From assembly GCF_041320605.1 (NCBI RefSeq), contig NZ_CP166679.1, positions 2,404,001 through 2,468,000 on the forward strand: a DNA stretch of 64,000 nucleotides. The letters are read 5' to 3'. The translations under genes and the position numbers were made by a program. Of this stretch, positions 146 to 7,966 are shown piece after piece. The stretch's first letter is position 1, and each line of letters begins with the position of its first letter. Origin of the DNA: Arenibacter antarcticus (lineage in GTDB: Bacteria; Bacteroidota; Bacteroidia; Flavobacteriales; Flavobacteriaceae). The notes below the pieces were generated by a model that did not search any database, was not told the origin of the DNA, and saw nothing but the letters and a program-made list of their open reading frames with translations.

Positions 146-760
146 TCAAATTAAGTTGCTGATTTTTAGATTGTTTTTAAATCCCAAGCGTTCAGGTTTT
201 AATTCAAATTTATCAATTTGATTTTTAATGCGGTTCACTAGCCCAAGTTTTTTTTTTTGGTCTAGGAATAAGTATTGTTTCGGTGGTTGATATTCAATTT
301 TTTTGGTGACCCTATTCCAGATGATTACCGCAAGTTTTCGTGCCGTCGCAATGACTGCGGAATGCCTTCCCTTTCGGTAGGCGACCCTTCGGAAAAAATC
401 GGAGAGGTGGGTATTCTTTAGGTTGCCTATGGCCTTCGCTGCTTGCCACAGGCTGACTTTCAGTCGGTAGCTTCCCTTTGGCACGCGGTTACTGAGTATC
501 TTTCCCCCTGACCTTGTTGTTCGGTACGAGCCTGAGCCAAGAGGAAAACTGTTTTGCGGTCTTGAACTTATTGAAGCCTTCGGGGCCTATCTCGCTCGTA
601 ATGGACAATATTGTAGAATGGCTCAGTCCATCGATGGCAAAGAGATCTACCCCGTTAAAATAACGGAAGGCTATTTAATTCAGGTCCTTTATTTGCGGTG
701 CGTTCTTGTTGGTCCTCTTATGTGGTTTGTCCGTTGTTTATATAGTTGCTCGGATGGATA
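146..760 (-). pseudogene. IS110/IS1111-type transposase remnant
   Basis: This is the C-terminal part of an IS110-family transposase in decay. The intact 112-codon tail (146-484) carries the family signature around FFRRVAYRKGRHSAVIATAR. Further upstream on the minus strand the reading continues as VDLFAIDGLSHSTILSITSE and FNKFKTAKQFSSWLRL. That part lies in a different frame from the tail: about one base appears lost near 501-512, where KVRGK should read on into ILSNRVPKG. A TAA stop interrupts the frame at 675-677 and another lies near 745. The N-terminal DEDD half is not visible, so the element cannot transpose by itself. I saw no matching terminal repeats. Family assignment is by recognition of conserved motifs and is fairly secure; the upstream limit is approximate. 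Confidence 0.75.
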
Positions 761-1626: not shown

Positions 1627-2454
1627 ATGATTTTACGATTGAATAAATACCCAATACTAATTGCATTACTTGTACTCTTCATTTCCTGCGACAAAAGAGG
1701 GCAAAAGCCTTTCTCCTTTGTTCAATTATGCGATACTCAATTGGGAATGGGTGGTTATGCACATGATATAAAAACATTCAAACAGGCTGTTATACAAATA
1801 AATGAGCTTAACCCTGATTTTGTTGTAATATGTGGTGACCTTGTTGAAGAAGCTACTGATAGTTCATATTCTGATTTTAAAAACATTATGAAAGGGTTTA
1901 ATATACCTTGCCACGTCGCTCCAGGAAACCATGATGTAGGCAATAATGCAAACGACTCAAAACTAAGTTATTACCGAAAAACTATTGGAAATGATTATTA
2001 CGAATTTCAACATAAGAAATATTCATTTATTGTGACAAATACACAATTATGGAAAGCTAATGTAGAGAACGAATCAGAAAAACATAATAATTGGTTTAAA
2101 GAAACTCTTAGGATTCAAAATGACAAACAGAATCCAATAGTTGTTATTGGACATTACCCTTTGTACACTGATTCTCCCAAAGAAGAAGAACACTATTTTA
2201 ATTTGCCTCTGATTAAAAGGAAAGAGATATTAGAATTATTTAAGAAAAACAATGTTGTTGCATACTTATCTGGTCATACTCATAAATTAGTGGTTAACAA
2301 TTATGAGAACATTCAACTCGTGAGTGGTGAAACTACCAGTAAGAATTTTGACAATAGACCTTTAGGATTTAGACTTTGGCAAGTTTCATCTGACACTATA
2401 CAACATCATTTCGTTTCTTTAGAAACTTCAGCATTAAACAAGGTGAAACCGTAA
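1627..2454 (+). CDS. Calcineurin-like metallophosphoesterase lipoprotein
   Basis: A 275-aa exported phosphoesterase. The first 21 residues form a lipoprotein signal ending in FISC, so Cys21 should be lipidated and the enzyme anchored in the envelope. All five metallophosphoesterase blocks are present: DTQLG (first Asp, with Gln where His is common), GDLVEE, GNHDVG, VIGHYP and the late GHTHK. The order and the DTQ variant resemble the CPPED1-like branch. Substrate is unknown; phosphomonoesters, phosphodiesters or phosphoproteins are all possible. It is a single transcription unit inside a decayed accessory stretch, yet its own frame and motifs look intact. Start chosen at the ATG giving the signal peptide. 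Confidence 0.85.
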   Translation: MILRLNKYPILIALLVLFISCDKRGQKPFSFVQLCDTQLGMGGYAHDIKTFKQAVIQINELNPDFVVICGDLVEEATDSSYSDFKNIMKGFNIPCHVAPGNHDVGNNANDSKLSYYRKTIGNDYYEFQHKKYSFIVTNTQLWKANVENESEKHNNWFKETLRIQNDKQNPIVVIGHYPLYTDSPKEEEHYFNLPLIKRKEILELFKKNNVVAYLSGHTHKLVVNNYENIQLVSGETTSKNFDNRPLGFRLWQVSSDTIQHHFVSLETSALNKVKP

Positions 2455-2519
2455 ACAACTGATTATTTTAAGAAAAAACTACCCTAACTTTTCATCCGAA
2501 CTAGATAAATGAAAAGAAA

Positions 2520-2759
2520 TGGACCTGCAACAAAATAGTGGACAATTAGATAAGAGTCATGCTGCTATTTTTTGATTATACAATTCTATTTCAATTTCCT
2601 CTATGGTCTTATACCCCAAAAGAGGAGTGTATTCTTCTTCTGTTATACCAGGTCTCTATTCGTTGGAAGACAGATAGCTCGACTTCTGACCGCAGGTTAT
2701 AGCTATGTGCATAGACCCATTCTACCTTTAGATGACCCTAAAAGCATTGTACGAAATCG
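2520..2759 (-). pseudogene. IS3-family element, truncated right end with transposase C-terminus
   Basis: Minus-strand reading gives the C-terminal end of an IS3 OrfB: HLKVEWVY, then VFQRIETWYNRRRIHSS and LGYKTIEEIEIELYNQ ending at stop 2557-2559. A single extra T in the T-run after HSS shifts the frame, and a TAG lies at 2738-2740. Beyond the stop, 2520-2544 reads as a 25-bp end of TG...CA type, consistent with the right terminal repeat. The rest of the element, including OrfA and the DDE core, is absent. The left cut falls just short of the 36-bp repeat at 2772. The family call rests on the conserved WYN..R.HSSLGY block. Confidence 0.7.
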
Positions 2760-2771
2760 TTGAAAAGGGAC

Positions 2772-2807
2772 TTGGTCTTTAATTTAAAGTTTTGTCTATA
2801 TTTATGA
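2772..2807 (+). repeat. 36-bp inverted repeat, left copy
   Basis: Begins TTGGTCTTTAATTTAAAG and matches 36 of 36 bases to the reverse complement of 7164-7199. The two copies bracket about 4.36 kb containing the LytTR/CPBP, DUF6155 and AraC/VOC units. It does not belong to the adjacent IS3 end. Confidence 0.9.
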
Positions 2808-2960
2808 TGGTGCCAAATCGAAAATTACGCGATAGCTAAATATTCAAAATTTGGCATTTGAAATCTAAAAAATAAACACAAACAAATTGCTTTGGCCAGG
2901 TACCTGCAGGATGGACATTACTTCTCTACTCCCGCACTACCCATAGTTGGGGCGTTAGCT
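2808..2960 (+). repeat. Boundary element, left copy
   Basis: Extends the 36-bp repeat with weaker similarity to the reverse complement of 7030-7163. Shared landmarks in order are a TTTGGC block, an AACA...GCTTT.GC.AGG block near 2878-2900, an identical CTCCCGCACTAC at 2929-2940, a CATA and a GGCGTT at 2951-2956. No coding frame lies across it. The gene that follows begins 58 bases later. Function unknown. Confidence 0.6.
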
Positions 2961-3017
2961 GCGATGGTAAAAAAAATTCGTCCTGAAATAGGTTGACTAA
3001 AAATGAGCTTCTAATTC

Positions 3018-3854
3018 ATGAGAACTACACTACCAACCAAGAATACAGTAAAAATAGCATTACAGGCATTTATCAGTAGTTCTGCATGGCGTTGGTTTCA
3101 AAAGGCCATTGTATTGACGATTTTCTCTTTAGTGGTAAATCATTTAGCAACACGTGATAGTTTTCCAGGTGGTGAATCGTATAGATTCCCCATAGAAGGT
3201 TTTATGTCATCAATTGTTTTATGTATTCTCATTGGAATCATAGCGCATTTTAATTTTAAATTTTACAAGAAAAAATATTTCTCTAAAAAGGTAGAAATTG
3301 TCACTATTGTATGGTTTATGGCTTCTACTCTGGGTTATATTACACTCATGTATACTCCTGTAAATATTATTGCAGATAAAGTTGTGGGGGGTCAGACAGT
3401 GTTTTATTATTTATTAATTGGTTTGCTACTTACTTTATTATTGAGTTTTATTCTAATAGGTTTATGGTATGCGCAAGACATATATAATTTATACAAGCTA
3501 TCCATAAAAGACGCTGAAATTACAATTGAAAGCGGTGCAAAAATCATAAAGCTCACTTATGAAAATATTTTATGCTTTTACAGCGAAAATAAAATTGTGT
3601 ATACGGTTCAAAAAGATGGTACAACAATTACCACCAATTTCACATTGAATGAGCTCGAGGAAAAAATAAATGATCAATTGTTTTTTAGAGCCAATCGTAA
3701 AATTATAATCCACAAAGATGCCGTAGACCAAATTGAAAAGATTGAAAATGGCAAGGTACGTATTCGGTTAAAAGCCTCCATTGAAAACGATGCAATTGCT
3801 GAAATCTATATCAGTCGTTACAAGCGAAAAGCATTTATGAATTGGTTTCAATAA
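3018..3854 (+). CDS. Membrane-anchored LytTR transcriptional regulator
   Basis: A 278-aa protein with about four hydrophobic segments in residues 20-160 followed by a C-terminal LytTR DNA-binding domain (about 180-278). The domain shows the typical ENILCFYSENKIVYTV strand pair, the FFRANRKIIIH block and the closing ISRYKRKAFMNWF. There is no receiver domain, so the input is probably sensed by the membrane part rather than by phosphotransfer. This architecture is common in Bacteroidota. The CPBP protease gene follows 125 bases later on the same strand and may be its partner or target. The start follows the boundary element and gives a positively charged N-terminus ahead of the first membrane segment. 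Confidence 0.85.
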   Translation: MRTTLPTKNTVKIALQAFISSSAWRWFQKAIVLTIFSLVVNHLATRDSFPGGESYRFPIEGFMSSIVLCILIGIIAHFNFKFYKKKYFSKKVEIVTIVWFMASTLGYITLMYTPVNIIADKVVGGQTVFYYLLIGLLLTLLLSFILIGLWYAQDIYNLYKLSIKDAEITIESGAKIIKLTYENILCFYSENKIVYTVQKDGTTITTNFTLNELEEKINDQLFFRANRKIIIHKDAVDQIEKIENGKVRIRLKASIENDAIAEIYISRYKRKAFMNWFQ

Positions 3855-3979
3855 AAGATGCAATCAACTACCGACTATTCAGTTATAAATTCACTACCAT
3901 TCAGTAAAAACATTAGTATTTAAAAGGTTTTTCAGAGATTTTGTTCAGTATTTCGTTTAGAATTTAAAATCACTTAAAA

Positions 3980-4642
3980 ATGAATAGACTGACCTTACGA
4001 CAAACACTAATTCCATTAATCACCATTGCAATCATCTGCTTTTTATGGTTTGGCCCCATCCGTTTAAGCTACATAGAAAATGTAGTTATTTCAATATTAA
4101 TAATTATAGCCAATTATATAGAATACAAAGGAAAACTATTTTCAGCACTTGGTTTTCAACGTGAAAATTTCACCGCCAAAAACATAGTCGTACATGCTCC
4201 ATTAGTTGCGCTAGGACTCTTTACTTTTTATGCCTTTGCATTAGTTCCAGCAATTACCAAACTCACAGGAGTTCCTATAGATTATTCAAGTTTTGATTCA
4301 TTGAAAGGAAATCTTCCTGCCTGTTTAATTGCATTACTGGTAGTTTGGGCTACTGCGGGGTTTGGAGAAGAAATTATCTTTCGCGGTTATTTTATGCGTC
4401 AATTTGTAAAATTCTTTGGAGAGTGCAAAGTCAGTATGGTTCTTAATATTGTCCTACTCGCTTGTTTTTTTGGCTTTATGCATAGTTATCAAGGAATTAC
4501 TGGGCAACTTGTTGCAGGGTCTGTCGGAGCGCTATTAGCCCTGATATTCTACTTGCGTAAATACGATTTGTGGTTCATTGTTGCTGTACACGGTTTTTTT
4601 GACACTATTGCTTTAATTTGTATTTACTTTAGTTTGGCGTAA
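3980..4642 (+). CDS. CPBP-family intramembrane glutamic endopeptidase
   Basis: A 220-aa polytopic protein with roughly seven hydrophobic segments. The diagnostic CAAX/CPBP motifs are present: GFGEEIIFRGYF (Glu130, Glu131, Arg135), FGFMHSYQG with a conserved His, and VAVHGFFDT near the end. These residues form the active site in the membrane. Members process prenylated proteins, bacteriocin-type peptides or anti-sigma factors; nothing here reveals the substrate. Placed directly downstream of a membrane LytTR regulator, it could take part in a regulated-proteolysis circuit, which is inference only. No partner peptide gene was found between 4642 and 5040. Confidence 0.85.
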   Translation: MNRLTLRQTLIPLITIAIICFLWFGPIRLSYIENVVISILIIIANYIEYKGKLFSALGFQRENFTAKNIVVHAPLVALGLFTFYAFALVPAITKLTGVPIDYSSFDSLKGNLPACLIALLVVWATAGFGEEIIFRGYFMRQFVKFFGECKVSMVLNIVLLACFFGFMHSYQGITGQLVAGSVGALLALIFYLRKYDLWFIVAVHGFFDTIALICIYFSLA

Positions 4643-5039
4643 CCATACCAAGTAACAACAATTACTACTTGAATTTACTCAATAAAACGCGCCTTTTACA
4701 CTATATTTTATAAAAATAATTAAACAGAACTATGGCTATATTTGATAGGTTTTTGAGATTTAAATGAAATTGCTGTGCTGAATCTGACTTAAAAATATAA
4801 TTGAGATAATTACAGTTGGTGTGTTTCGTATAATACTACGCAAGTGGATTTCACTCTTGCGTAATCGTTGCGTAAATGGTCTCGTTACGGAATAAATTCG
4901 TAGGAAAACGCAAAGTTTCGTGCTTACTTACTCCAACGAAACCACAGCACCTAATTGAGTGGATGGCTCCGCCATCTAAAGACGGAGTGCACTTATAGCT
5001 CGGGCGTTACTAACAAGCTGCAAAAACATATAACTGAGA
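4643..5039. repeat. Intergenic with boundary element, middle copy
   Basis: No gene. A promoter-like TATATTTG lies at 4737-4744 without a gene behind it. Small inverted repeats include ACGCAAG...CTTGCGT near 4843-4870 and GATGGC-TCC-GCCATC at 4962-4976. It shares AAAACGCAAAG (4905-4915) with the minus strand of 7101-7111. It also shares the GCACT..TATA..GGGCGTTA layout (4989-5009) with both outer boundary copies. The broken DUF6155 gene follows 30 bases later. Confidence 0.5.
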
Positions 5040-5516
5040 ATGGCATTAAGAGAGGTGAAAAAGGAATTAAGCGGAATGGACAAAACTGAAATCGTAAAAC
5101 TAATTTCAGAGATGTACAAAAAAATGCCGGCCGAAAAAACCTATTTGGACGTTTTCGCGACTGGAGAAATTAAGCAACTTGTAGAGAAATACAAAAAGGA
5201 AATTGAAAGATAGATTTATCCAAGTGGGCGGAATATGCAGTTGCGTGAAACTGAGGCTCGAAATATAATACTGACTGTTCAAAAAATGAAAATAACTGAA
5301 CTTAATGTGGAGTTGGAATTACATTATGTGGGTTGTTGTTTAGAGGTTATCGAAGATTTCGGATATTGGGATGACGGCTATTATGTGGCGTTGGAAAGTA
5401 TGTTTTACAACGCTACAAGCGGAATTAATGAGTTGGGCATGGAGGAAAAATATGAAGAACGCATAATTGGTATTATGCATAAGGCCAGCGAATTCGGGAT
5501 AGAACTTTCCTGCTAA
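5040..5516 (+). pseudogene. DUF6155-like gene split by an in-frame amber codon
   Basis: One frame runs from ATG 5040 to TAA 5514-5516, 158 codons in all, with TAG at 5211-5213 after 57 codons. The N-terminal half (MALREVKKELSGMDKTEIV) has the opening helix typical of DUF6155 proteins. The rest (ELNVELELHYVGCCLEV, then FGYWDDGYYVALESMF) continues the same family in the same frame, so the two pieces are one gene and a former Tyr or similar codon is now TAG. Downstream translation could restart at ATG 5235, giving a 93-aa fragment. Function of the family is unknown; members are small accessory proteins. The family name is recalled from pattern and is moderately sure. Confidence 0.6.
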
Positions 5517-5536
5517 TGTGGAAAAAGCCAGTTGGT

Positions 5537-5589
5537 AATAAGTAAGCATTCGTGCGGTCGGTACGACCGAGCATGAATGCTTAGTTATT
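5537..5589. repeat. 53-nt hairpin between convergent genes
   Basis: Near-perfect inverted repeat: a 15-bp outer arm (5537-5551 with 5575-5589, one mismatch), an inner GGTCG/CGACC stem around a GTA loop, and unequal bulges between. It separates DUF6155 (plus) from the VOC gene (minus). It could act as a two-way terminator, but neither side has a real T-run. Confidence 0.6.
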
Positions 5590-5613
5590 GTGCGTCGTTC
5601 TTTTCCGTCGTGT

Positions 5614-6108
5614 TTAGTTTGGGGAATTTAGACCAAGTTTATTGCCTTCTGTGTCTAAAAACAAAGCAAAAAATCCACTTTCATCTGCGTGAGTTGTTTT
5701 CGGAACAATGATTGTTCCGCCATTTTTTTCGACCTTATCAAGAATGCTTTGAAGATTATCTCCACCGTTTAAATACATGGTTACTCCATCAGCCGAAGGT
5801 TTGTATCCTTCGCCCTTCATTATAACTCCTGTAACCATTTGTTCTTCGTGTGGGAATATTCCTAGTTCCATTCCTGGCATTTCCATTTTCTCAATGTTAA
5901 TGTCTAAAATTGCTTGATAAAAATCTACTGCCCGTGAAATTTCTGTTGCTGGAATTTCAAAAATTGAAATATGACTTTTCATATCGTTTGTTTTTTGTGT
6001 TACGTTTGAATCAACCTTTTGCTTGTCGGAATCAGATTTGGTTTGACCATTGCAAGCGATTGTACTAAAGGAAAGTGTTATTGCAAAACATAGTATTGTC
6101 TTTTTCAT
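5614..6108 (-). CDS. VOC (glyoxalase-fold) family lipoprotein
   Basis: A 164-aa protein. MKKTILCFAITLSFSTIAC is a lipoprotein signal with Cys19 as the lipidation site, followed by a low-complexity linker. The VOC domain then begins at SHISIFEIPATEISRAVDFY and ends at ALFLDTEGNKLGLNS, with the usual beta-alpha-beta layout and a Glu near the end as a possible metal ligand. Most VOC proteins are cytoplasmic, so an exported form is uncommon. An upstream TTG could extend the frame by seven codons, but the ATG at 6108 gives a clean signal peptide and was chosen. It lies 74 bases downstream of the AraC regulator on the same strand and is probably co-transcribed with it. Confidence 0.8.
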   Translation of the reverse strand: MKKTILCFAITLSFSTIACNGQTKSDSDKQKVDSNVTQKTNDMKSHISIFEIPATEISRAVDFYQAILDINIEKMEMPGMELGIFPHEEQMVTGVIMKGEGYKPSADGVTMYLNGGDNLQSILDKVEKNGGTIIVPKTTHADESGFFALFLDTEGNKLGLNSPN

Positions 6109-6182
6109 ATTGACCTGTTTAATTGACAATACAAATTTAGATTACCTACAAAGGCTAAAATTGTAAAAATGCGACACGCTGT

Positions 6183-6998
6183 CTATTTGTAGAAAAGAGT
6201 AGAAAGAGCCATATTTTCATTGCCTAGAAACTCCTTCGGGTTAATTCCGGTAAACTCCTTAAAGTCTTTATTAAAATGAGCTTGGTCGAAATATTCACTT
6301 TCATATGCAATGTTAGTTAGGTTTTCCGTCTTTTTGTTCAGTAACATTTTTAATGCCGTTTGTAGTCGGATTACTTTACCTAACTGTTTTGGGCTAACAC
6401 CGATTTGTTTTATAAAATTTCTTTCGAGTTGTCTTCTTTTGGACAAGTCTTCTTTAAGAATAGTGGTTATTGATGCAGTTCCATTTGTTGATAAAAGGGC
6501 ATCGATGGTCATTTTTACAATGTTGTCAATAGTGGTTTTCTCGTTCAACTTATCTAAAAAAAAATTTTCTATGATCTCTATTCGCTGTTTACTGTCTGTT
6601 GCCTGAATTATTTTTCGTTCCAGTTCTTTAGCGGTATTTTCTCCGAACAGCAATTCTATTGGGGTTTCTTTGTTTGCTAAATTTTTAATGGGTTCAGTAA
6701 CGAAATTGGCAAAACCATACGGATAAAATCGAATTGCAAATGTATTGACGTAGCCTGTTGGTTCGATATAAAATGGTTCAATGGTTTGTCCAAGTACCAT
6801 TGCACGAGGTTGAAGGATAAATTCATCTTGGGAAGTATATCGTTTAATGTCATCTCCAAGGATAAATGCCATTTCAATGCAACCATCAGGTATAATCCGC
6901 TGTCTTTCCGTATCATTTTCGGCAGGAACTTCTAAAGTCCAATAGCAACTTACAAGCGATTCTAAATCTAGATGCGGTTGGAATGTTTGATAGTTCAT
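6183..6998 (-). CDS. AraC-family transcriptional regulator
   Basis: A 271-aa regulator. The N-terminal half (MNYQTFQPHLDLESLVSCYW, then IIPDGCIEMAF) is the DUF6597-type sensing domain common in this family. The C-terminal 90 residues carry the double helix-turn-helix of AraC/XylS: RRQLERNFIKQIGVSPKQL followed by IAYESEYFDQAHFNKDFKEF and TGINPKEF. It probably controls itself and the downstream VOC lipoprotein. The ligand is unknown. The gene starts 32 bases from the GGCGTT core of the right boundary element, so its promoter must overlap that repeat. Confidence 0.88.
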   Translation of the reverse strand: MNYQTFQPHLDLESLVSCYWTLEVPAENDTERQRIIPDGCIEMAFILGDDIKRYTSQDEFILQPRAMVLGQTIEPFYIEPTGYVNTFAIRFYPYGFANFVTEPIKNLANKETPIELLFGENTAKELERKIIQATDSKQRIEIIENFFLDKLNEKTTIDNIVKMTIDALLSTNGTASITTILKEDLSKRRQLERNFIKQIGVSPKQLGKVIRLQTALKMLLNKKTENLTNIAYESEYFDQAHFNKDFKEFTGINPKEFLGNENMALSTLFYK

Positions 6999-7029
6999 AT
7001 ATTAACAGGTTTTTTTCTGAATGACGCAC

Positions 7030-7163
7030 AACGCCTAAGCTCGTATGAGTAGTGCGGGAGCAAACTTGCGCTTACCATTCCGTCATTCACCTAGCAAAAG
7101 CTTTGCGTTTTTGTTCTTTTCTTTCTTATTGTTCTAAAAGCCAAATCAAAAGATTTTGAGCCC
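7030..7163 (-). repeat. Boundary element, right copy (inverted)
   Basis: Read on the minus strand it repeats the layout of 2808-2960. AAAACGCAAAG lies at 7101-7111 and CTCCCGCACTAC at 7049-7060, identical to 2929-2940. These are followed by CATA and GGCGTT (7030-7035). Similarity between landmarks is partial, as expected for diverged copies of one repeat family. Confidence 0.6.
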
Positions 7164-7199
7164 TCATAAATATAGACAAAACTTTAAATTAAAGACCAA
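7164..7199 (-). repeat. 36-bp inverted repeat, right copy
   Basis: Exact reverse complement of 2772-2807. It closes the 4.36-kb bracketed segment. Outside it the sequence turns into decayed coding remnants. Confidence 0.9.
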
Positions 7200-7966
7200 T
7201 GCCCACATTACTTCATAGGTTATGTTGAACTAAAGTGTTTTTTTCGCAATGATTCCATAACAGTTTTATATTTTTTAATCACAACAGTGAGAAAAGTATC
7301 GGTTCTGCTTGCGTTTTAAGTGCGTCCGAGTAAGGAAGTATTAAAAGTCTTGCGTACCCCTCCGAATCGAGCTAAAATCCATTTGCGCATTAGTGGCAAG
7401 TCCAGCTACGTACAGATTGGAGATTTGATTGCCTACAGATTTGCCATCTAGATTATGCGATTATTGGGTTTTTTTAGAGTATTGGAAGAATCAAAAAGGT
7501 GATGTGTACCTCTTTGTTTATGAATATGGTTTTCTGAAGAAAACTAATATGGGGAAGGAAAAGTATCTATTGGTCACTTGGCAAGATTATATGGAGCTCC
7601 ACAAATAGAAATTCAACTAGTACGCTATAAATACAATGCTTGTAATCGTTAAAGTGCTAAGCATTATCCTCCTTAAGGATGAGCCATATTTCTACCGTTT
7701 AAAAGTAGTAGTTCTGCAGCCCCGTCCAAAACCGAACTCCCAATTACTTTAAGTAAATCTGAGTCGTAGATACATCTTTATAACGCAATGATTTCCAGAT
7801 AACATCTGTAGCAATTCCTTTTTTGTTTTGTGATTAGATGAGGTAAGATTTATATTTCGTCAATCTGTAAAGGAAAATTCTACAGCTATATTTTCCACAA
7901 TATCTCCTACAACCTACACCTAGTTGGATCCAAATATTATATTTGTGAATTTATAAACTATAAAGA
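7200..7966. other. Intergenic with decayed coding remnants
   Basis: No intact gene. Minus strand 7350-7470 reads GKSVGNQISNLYVAGLATN followed by AQMDFSSIRRGTQDF, coding-like but unidentified. Plus strand about 7421-7609 has an open frame without ATG that contains GDVYLFVYEYGFLKKTNMG. Minus strand 7744-7826 reads KGIATDVIWKSLRYKDVSTT then QIYLK, which resembles the C-terminus of a tyrosine recombinase. A TAtaTTTG promoter-like -7 element at 7938-7945 fits the flavoprotein gene at 7967. Confidence 0.4.

What the first reader, a model, noticed from the sequence alone, without database searches (positions are those of the whole stretch)
2808..7163. Three copies of one boundary element separate small gene units, cassette-like
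Copies at 2808-2960, 4905-5013 and 7030-7163 (inverted) share an ordered set of landmarks: AAAACGCAAAG-like block, CTCCCGCACTAC or GCACT, TATA and GGGCGTTA/GGCGTT. Each sits between independent one- or two-gene units. That is the layout of an array of exchangeable cassettes. The elements do not match the classical attC core, so this could be a different family of intergenic recombination or regulatory repeats in Flavobacteriaceae.
Basis: partly seen in the sequence, partly recalled or inferred. Interest (0 to 1): 0.55.

Follow-up and report, generated by a model that had tools for sequence, protein, structure and literature searches.

The report
An overlooked integron system in flavobacteria
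The repeats are worn-out copies of recombination sites from a gene-cassette system that works like an integron but seems to be run by a different enzyme, and intact versions, with up to about a hundred such sites per genome, sit in other flavobacteria and relatives.

Summary
Two of the three copies (2767-2956, 7030-7226) are one element family. Copy 2 is a chimera: a group II intron relic fused to an element's last bases. A missed hairpin (5537-5589) is a fourth site.
Elsewhere in this genome and its relatives the system looks intact: a ~375-aa tyrosine recombinase without the IntI insert, an attI-like site 26-134 bp after its stop codon, then head-to-tail one-gene cassettes ending in attC-shaped sites.
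Key result, circle closure: cassette start (GTT+6 nt) and cassette end (6 nt+AAC), hundreds of bases apart, are reverse complements in 182 of 235 cassettes (3.3 expected by shuffling) and 60 of 73 in an independent set (2.1 expected). Two bases past the tag sits a near-obligate A.C mismatch.
The window holds a decayed remnant without recombinase; its AraC-VOC pair closes as a cassette, the LytTR-CPBP unit does not.
It works like an integron but fails two IntI-integron criteria: the recombinase and the GTTRRRY/RYYYAAC cores. Recombination was not tested. Eight literature searches found no description; preprints and most subscription journals were not covered.

The parts
2767..2956 (+). Copy 1: long-class attC-like element, 5'-truncated (model positions 22-189), ends in GTT at 2954-2956
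   Evidence: E 1e-25; also found in the whole-genome search with model R2 (G000:C1:2406763-2406956)
2957..4642 (+). LytTR-domain gene (3018-3854) and CPBP-type protease gene (3980-4642) between copies 1 and 2; start and end tags do not match, so not verified as a cassette
   Evidence: Pfam LytTR and Rce1-like; no strict tag match in the scan of 2401-7700; candidate end tags compared by eye also failed
4953..5008 (+). Copy 2: relic of the 3' end of a group II intron (4953-4992, antisense) fused to the last ~16 bases of an element, GTT at 5006-5008
   Evidence: RF00029 overlapping the homologous stretches of L006, L007, L072; window 4600-5100 itself has no Rfam match
5007..5537 (+). Probable cassette with two small ORFs (5040-5213, 5235-5516); start tag against end tag 5 of 6, end site reads AAT instead of AAC
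   Evidence: Sequences printed, compared by eye; ORFs
5537..5589 (.).
   Evidence: Fold of 5518-5606 as DNA: -21.0 kcal/mol top, -16.6 bottom
5587..7031 (-). Cassette closing 6 of 6: AraC-type regulator (6183-6998) and glyoxalase/VOC protein (5614-6129); start GTTGTGCGTCATTC, end complement ATTGTGCGTCGTTC (12 of 14 overall)
   Evidence: Sequences printed, compared by eye; inverted repeat I20, 5579-5600 with 7019-7040; Pfam
7030..7226 (-). Copy 3: full-length long-class attC-like element (model positions 1-189)
   Evidence: E 2.9e-39
7302..7402 (-). Relic of a cassette that occurs several times in the array of L063 (Arenibacter sp. F26102)
   Evidence: 76-84% identity to five places in L063, 81% to L077
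7459..7596 (+). Broken remnant of the small conserved gene that lies divergently beside the recombinase in intact platforms; no recombinase gene lies between it and copy 3
   Evidence: 34 of 42 identical; 76%; gene present in 22 of 22 main-clade platforms and 3 of 14 others

Best explanation
The elements are attC-type recombination sites of an integron-like cassette system. A ~375-aa Xer-like tyrosine recombinase (not IntI) is proposed to recombine the folded bottom strand of these sites with an attI-like site just downstream of its own gene, exchanging DNA within the GTT. Cassettes then leave and enter as circles in a fixed orientation. In each circle the cassette's own first bases (TT+6) meet its own last bases (6+AAC) to rebuild the site, which is why the two are complementary. 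Shown by sequence: array anatomy, closure, attI-like sites, structure covariation, identical cassettes with different neighbours. Inferred: that this recombinase does it, that circles exist, which strand is used. The window is a decayed remnant: part of the platform's neighbour gene, no recombinase, one full and two damaged elements, a short hairpin, one clean cassette, and intron debris.
For: Elements downstream of the recombinase in 22 of 22 and 14 of 14 loci of the first two sets, 201 of 201 and 90 of 90 on the recombinase's strand. Closure 182 of 235 at 6/6 (3.3 expected) and 60 of 73 (2.1 expected). attI-type closing site after the stop codon in 39 of 52 loci, against 28 of 940 random positions and 7 of 52 with arrays swapped between loci. 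11 of 13 consensus pairs change on both sides, covariation 0.478 against 0.130, 0 of 500 shuffles. Bottom strand folds more stably in 230 of 235. 27 near-identical cassette pairs, at least one neighbour differing in 26. Group II introns and IS110-type transposases (annotated in L312, L313; by eye in L064) in or beside such arrays, as described for attC sites.
Against: No recombination assay. 53 of 235 and 13 of 73 pairs do not close 6/6; 13 of 52 loci lack a strict attI hit. Loci were selected by recombinase score and available downstream sequence, not at random; upstream sequence is short. Of 4 further same-family loci taken later (L308-L311), 2 had no element-model hit and 2 one weak hit, and 1 of 4 passed the strict attI test. 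Some loci hold only one or two detected elements. Recombinase assignment rests on proximity. In the window one unit closes 6/6, and the two R'' sites read AAT, not AAC.
Confidence: 0.9

Rival explanations
1. The elements are ordinary dispersed intergenic repeats (REP-, MITE- or terminator-like) with no cassette function; arrays arise by tandem duplication.
For: Copies also occur singly across the own genome (13 matches with R2, several scattered), and 4 of 27 near-identical cassette pairs are tandem.
Against: It does not explain why DNA at the two ends of a cassette, outside the repeat, is complementary cassette by cassette, nor the matching attI-type site beside the recombinase, nor one-strand arrays.
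Confidence: 0.04
2. These are classical integrons whose IntI has diverged and lost its additional domain.
For: The recombinase scores 198-212 bits with the IntI model (cut-off 265); the solved IntI4 is its second-best PDB match; IntI and the cassette recombinases sit on the same side of XerC/XerD with modest support (82). A classification of tyrosine recombinases says the insertion is not fully conserved within its integron-like subgroup, though essential for integron function (PMC8138268, passages).
Against: 0 of 60 relatives pass the IntI cut-off, while 107 of 392 phylum genomes do, none of those listed in this family. IntI forms its own clade (99) excluding the cassette recombinases. GTTRRRY and RYYYAAC are absent.
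Confidence: 0.2
3. The recombinase near the arrays is a Xer-type dimer-resolution or transposon enzyme and the cassettes are moved by something else.
For: It passes the NF040815 cut-off (232 and 235 bits against 220), and several other tyrosine recombinases exist in the genomes.
Against: The five Flavobacteriaceae genomes checked carry, besides it, one gene of 330-338 bits and one of 237-250 bits with the XerD model, presumably XerD and XerC. The attI-like site closing the first cassette lies at this recombinase's 3' end in most loci.
Confidence: 0.08
4. Each repeat is itself a small transposon and the gene between is bystander DNA.
For: Repeats are about 120-260 bp with inverted arms.
Against: Near-identical DNA extends over whole cassettes, gene plus element (27 pairs, for example one 727-bp cassette three times at 100% with different neighbours).
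Confidence: 0.03

Closest known systems
Integrons with IntI (class 1, Vibrio superintegrons)
   Same: Recombinase gene, adjacent attI-like site, one-orientation arrays of mostly single-gene cassettes, imperfect-hairpin sites with GTT/AAC ends, bottom strand the more stable fold, invaded by group II introns and IS110-type elements
   Different: Recombinase lacks the IntI insert and lies outside the IntI clade; complementary end tags are 6-7 nt plus an A.C mismatch plus 3 more pairs instead of GTTRRRY/RYYYAAC; attI-like site at the 3' end of the recombinase gene
Treponema chromosomal integrons (PMC3607928, passages read)
   Same: Recombinase transcribed toward attI in the direction of the cassettes
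   Different: Those have a true intI, as that paper reports
Archaeal integrons (PMC9668308, passages read)
   Same: Integron outside the usual hosts
   Different: Their IntIs keep the IntI-specific domain, as that paper reports
XerA/XerD-type recombinases (NF040815)
   Same: Catalytic domain and best profile match
   Different: About 100-residue N-terminal extension; sits beside cassette arrays; the genomes checked carry separate Xer-like genes
CALIN, attC clusters without integrase (PMC9024848, passages read)
   Same: The window locus is the analogous state: sites and cassettes without a recombinase
   Different: Sites belong to this other family

Membership tests
Integron (IntI family) | Recombinase is an IntI: passes TIGR02249 and has the additional domain | tested here: not met
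   0 of 60 genomes over cut-off; 198 and 212 bits against 265; alignments to the IntI model and to IntI4 skip the region between the two matched stretches (model about 180-240; 28 residues in the query against 70 in IntI4)
Integron (IntI family) | Recombinase falls in the IntI clade | tested here: not met
   IntI (19 rows) one clade at 99; all 30 cassette-recombinase rows outside; deeper order weakly supported, quick method
Integron (IntI family) | Tyrosine recombinase catalytic residues present | tested here: met
   R235, K260, H324, R327, H350, Y359 invariant in 25 sequences; which residues are catalytic is recalled
Integron (IntI family) | attI site beside the recombinase gene that closes the first cassette | tested here: met
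   39 of 52 loci by the strict pattern; 21 of 22 main-clade loci have a 6/6 tag between the stop codon and the first detected element, in 19 of them 39-83 bp after the stop
Integron (IntI family) | attC folds as R''-L''-loop-L'-R' hairpin with paired arms | tested here: met
   L stem at least 6 of 7 in 233 of 249 unique elements against 92 after shuffling; covariation
Integron (IntI family) | Core sites GTTRRRY / RYYYAAC | tested here: not met
   7 and 8 of 235
Integron (IntI family) | Head-to-tail cassettes in one orientation | tested here: met
   201 of 201 and 90 of 90 elements; longest ORF on the array strand in 223 of 243 cassettes with an ORF of 60 aa or more. Not met in the window remnant, where two units converge
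Integron (IntI family) | Recombinase-dependent excision and integration of circular cassettes | not testable with these tools
   Needs experiment
Integron (IntI family) | Cassette promoter (Pc) | not tested
   -
Xer recombinase NF040815 | Profile score over curated cut-off | tested here: met
   232.1 and 235.1 against 220; describes the protein family, not this role
Group II intron (for copy 2) | Match to an Rfam group II intron model | tested here: inconclusive
   RF00029 at the homologous stretches of L006, L007, L072; not at those of L010, L018, L029 at the gathering threshold; no match in window 4600-5100: only a short relic

The most novel reading that the evidence does not exclude
Integrons arose more than once: Bacteroidota carry a second, independently evolved integron class built on a Xer-like recombinase. 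It spreads across the phylum, forms superintegron-size arrays in flavobacteria, and marks each cassette with a private self-complementary end tag plus a near-obligate A.C mismatch that may set strand choice.
Probability: 0.45. Interest if true: 0.95.

Novelty: new variant of a known kind. Interest (0 to 1): 0.85.

Why it matters
The integron survey whose passages I read reports in Bacteroidetes only In0 elements and one complete integron, in Salinibacter (PMC9024848), although reviews list the phylum among integron carriers (PMC8618304). Here recombinase relatives occur in 167 of 299 Flavobacteriaceae genomes at E <= 1e-60, and 36 of 36 such loci in the first two sets examined had elements. 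If right, the known host range of cassette exchange grows by a large part of a phylum, the IntI additional domain is not needed for this way of moving genes, and there is a second system for testing how a recombinase uses folded single strands. It also gives a candidate route, outside known integrons, for accessory genes to leave Bacteroidota.

Tried and rejected
Rfam on the window found only a tRNA at the gathering threshold. A first alignment showed that copy 2 does not align well; later kept as a chimera. IntI search in relatives gave no IntI over the cut-off. AlphaFold of the recombinase was poor (mean pLDDT 63.5, pTM 0.34) and was not used; no fold search was made. The tree could not settle whether the cassette recombinases are sisters of IntI (quick method, long branches flagged). 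A scan of window 2401-7700 for strict 6/6 closures with intact AAC returned none; the window tags were then compared by eye on the sequences printed there. The LytTR-CPBP unit could not be closed. Phages gave no recombinase match at E <= 1e-50. The Chryseobacterium plasmid (L312) gave tag matches without the A.C mismatch and is not counted as positive; the Persicobacter plasmid (L314) gave no closing site. The named loci were used for names and for the alignment A2, not searched for arrays. Literature: eight term searches on this question listed no paper on non-IntI integrons in Bacteroidota; two more served other points. Preprints and most subscription journals are not in that library.
Full report
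OBSERVATION. The window lies at G000:C1:2404001-2468000 of a 4.69-Mb genome. Its genus is taken as Arenibacter because two same-genus contigs agree in length with Arenibacter records (113,172 and 163,107 bases). Copies 1 and 3 are homologous and longer than reported (2767-2956 + and 7030-7226 -). Copy 2 is not homologous to them beyond chance. Its repeated core, 4953-4992, matches DNA in several relatives. There it overlaps the end of group II intron matches (RF00029 in L006, L007, L072), and by eye it follows an element-type end tag in several of the eight contexts printed. The window stretch itself has no Rfam match.

FROM REPEATS TO ARRAYS. Searching 60 genomes (own included) with copies 2 and 3 found matches in 10 and 17, some in runs, for example six in under 6 kb of G009. 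Profiles built from these gave full elements whose flanks differ from copy to copy. An IntI model found no IntI above its cut-off in the 60, but among its best sub-threshold hits were ~378-aa tyrosine recombinases beside the elements (G009, G000, G003, G017). They match NF040815, XerD, IntI and XerC models with 190-235 bits and lack the IntI insert. They have relatives at E <= 1e-60 in 167 of 299 Flavobacteriaceae genomes; that threshold also catches shorter recombinases whose context was mostly not examined.

ARRAYS DOWNSTREAM OF THE RECOMBINASE. I took 20 further loci from high-scoring hits and, with L063 and L064, examined 22. All had elements (1 to 24 each), 201 of 201 on the recombinase's strand. 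The profile seeds came from these loci, so presence is partly by construction, but strand is not. Fourteen loci with recombinases at 35-46% identity, not used in training, also all had elements (1 to 14 each), 90 of 90 on that strand. Five loci with classical IntI had none. Four more same-family loci taken later (L308-L311) had 0, 1, 1 and 0 model hits. Upstream sequence in these loci is short (about 1.4-2 kb). Whole-genome counts with a covariance model gave 103 matches in G079 (most of those listed within 3,130-3,199 kb), 99 in G031 (two clusters among those listed, one ending beside its recombinase), then 50, 49, 44, 35, 17, 9 (own), 8, 1 and three genomes with 0 (13 genomes, 150 candidates scored each, so lower bounds).

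CIRCLE CLOSURE. If cassettes are exchanged as circles cut within GTT, a cassette's first bases and its last bases must together form one site. Among 235 adjacent pairs the 6 nt after GTT equal the complement of the 6 nt before the next AAC in 182 (3.3 expected when ends are shuffled among cassettes); 200 match at least 5. In the independent set 60 of 73 match (2.1 expected). Position 8 almost never pairs (3 of 235, 4 of 73): A at the start in 225 and 72, opposite C in 198 and 60; positions 9-11 pair again. Failures (53 and 13) include missed short elements and inserted introns or IS, seen by eye, but I did not account for all.

ATTI. In 21 of 22 main-clade loci a GTT with the first detected element's tag (6 of 6) lies between the recombinase stop codon and that element. 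In 19 it is 39-83 bp after the stop, often preceded by a palindrome (by eye). In L126 and L129 it lies further in because earlier elements were missed. L139 had only 5 of 6. In the 14-locus set 11 had 6/6, 2 had 5/6, one none. With one strict pattern across 52 loci, 39 were positive (19 of 22, 10 of 14, 10 of 16); controls were 28 of 940 random reverse-strand positions and 7 of 52 when arrays were swapped between loci. Of 12 loci outside Flavobacteriaceae, 9 were positive: 4 of 5 in the same class, 5 of 7 in other classes of the phylum. So the system is probably phylum-wide, though element models match weakly or not at all there and only 1 of the 4 later same-family loci passed.

STRUCTURE. 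Elements run mostly 118-126 or 170-260 bases; a 45-base example was seen by eye. RNAalifold found an L stem and inner stem unaided. On 27 diverse elements 11 of 13 pairs change on both sides; the covariation score is 0.478 against 0.130 (0 of 500), and slides of 1-3 columns give at most 0.118. Folded as DNA with the cassette's own start attached, the bottom strand is the more stable in 230 of 235; G-T pairing may contribute and was not controlled.

MOBILITY AND CARGO. Of 273 cassettes (median 759 bp) 27 pairs are at least 90% identical over 95% of their length, 26 within a locus. At least one neighbour differs in 26, both are shown to differ in 9, and 4 are tandem. One 727-bp cassette occurs three times at 100%, and the own genome's platform has a 576-bp cassette twice in tandem at 100%. 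Cassette ORFs start a median of 32 nt from the cassette start and lie on the array strand in 223 of 243 (30 cassettes had none). Of 10 proteins picked from 20 listed, 5 had Pfam families (GNAT, FRG, amidohydrolase, metallo-beta-lactamase fold, DMP19/MORN) and 5 none.

THE WINDOW LOCUS. The AraC-VOC pair (5587-7031, -) closes: GTTGTGCGTCATTC against ATTGTGCGTCGTTC, 6 of 6 in the tag, with the A/G mismatch at its usual place (sequences, compared by eye). The + unit 5007-5537 closes 5 of 6. Both meet at one hairpin (5537-5589), so two units converge there, unlike intact arrays. The LytTR-CPBP unit does not close. Beside copy 3 are relics of a cassette of the L063 array (7302-7402) and of the small gene that is divergent to the recombinase in 22 of 22 main-clade and 3 of 14 other platforms. 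No recombinase lies between them. A platform with an intact 375-aa recombinase frame is about 770 kb away (G000:C1 about 1,632-1,637 kb).

COMPARISON. It works like an integron. It fails two tests of the IntI family, the recombinase and the core sites. IntI passes its cut-off in 107 of 392 phylum genomes, none of the listed ones in this family. Papers whose passages I read use the additional domain to define IntI (PMC9668308; PMC2426708) and report in Bacteroidetes only In0 elements and one complete Salinibacter integron (PMC9024848); against a sharp line, PMC8138268 says the insertion is not fully conserved in its integron-like subgroup. Treponema integrons share the recombinase-toward-attI layout (PMC3607928). 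IS1111-type IS and group IIC introns are known to target attC sites (PMC11187229; PMC8876359). I therefore file it as a new variant of the integron kind; independent origin is possible but not shown.

Noticed in passing
L315 (plasmid pHH1107, 3552-5573); listing: A truncated relative of the cassette recombinase (annotated TnpF; xerD in the tet(X3) literature, PMC8635130 passages) lies directly upstream of tet(X3) in the same direction, with an attI-like palindrome between them (by eye); the tags on either side of the gene match only 3 of 6. The gene may once have been captured as a first cassette. 69 plasmid records match the recombinase, 50 of them Acinetobacter; only this context was looked at. 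Described only.
   Followed up: partly
L313 (Rufibacter tibetensis plasmid 1): Plasmid-borne recombinase with a closing attI-type site and a row of small co-oriented genes: possibly a mobile version of the system.
   Followed up: partly
L006, L007, L010, L024, L029 (contexts): Group II intron ends sit at one fixed place, right after the end tag of an element, much as group IIC-attC introns are described at integron attC sites.
   Followed up: partly
L071, L079, L080; L068, L069, L081; L064:1648-2876: Two stretches (ending ...GGGCACACACAA and ...CAACAGGCACA) recur directly before element starts in place of the end tag, and an IS110-like transposase (by eye) lies against a partial element in L064; perhaps IS110-type elements that target the sites.
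   Followed up: no
L143 (five places) and window about 2978-3000: A near-identical ~1.45-kb sequence starts at the same spot just after the cassette start in several cassettes of L143; similar bases follow copy 1 in the window, perhaps an IS that targets cassette starts.
   Followed up: no
L063:8215-8592 (+), L064:12154-12534 (+): A ~125-aa protein with a cysteine-rich start and no Pfam or NCBIfam match is divergent to the recombinase in 22 of 22 main-clade platforms; it may be a regulator or partner.
   Followed up: partly
window 146-484 (-): ORF that looks by eye like the C-terminal remnant of an IS110/IS116-type transposase.
   Followed up: no
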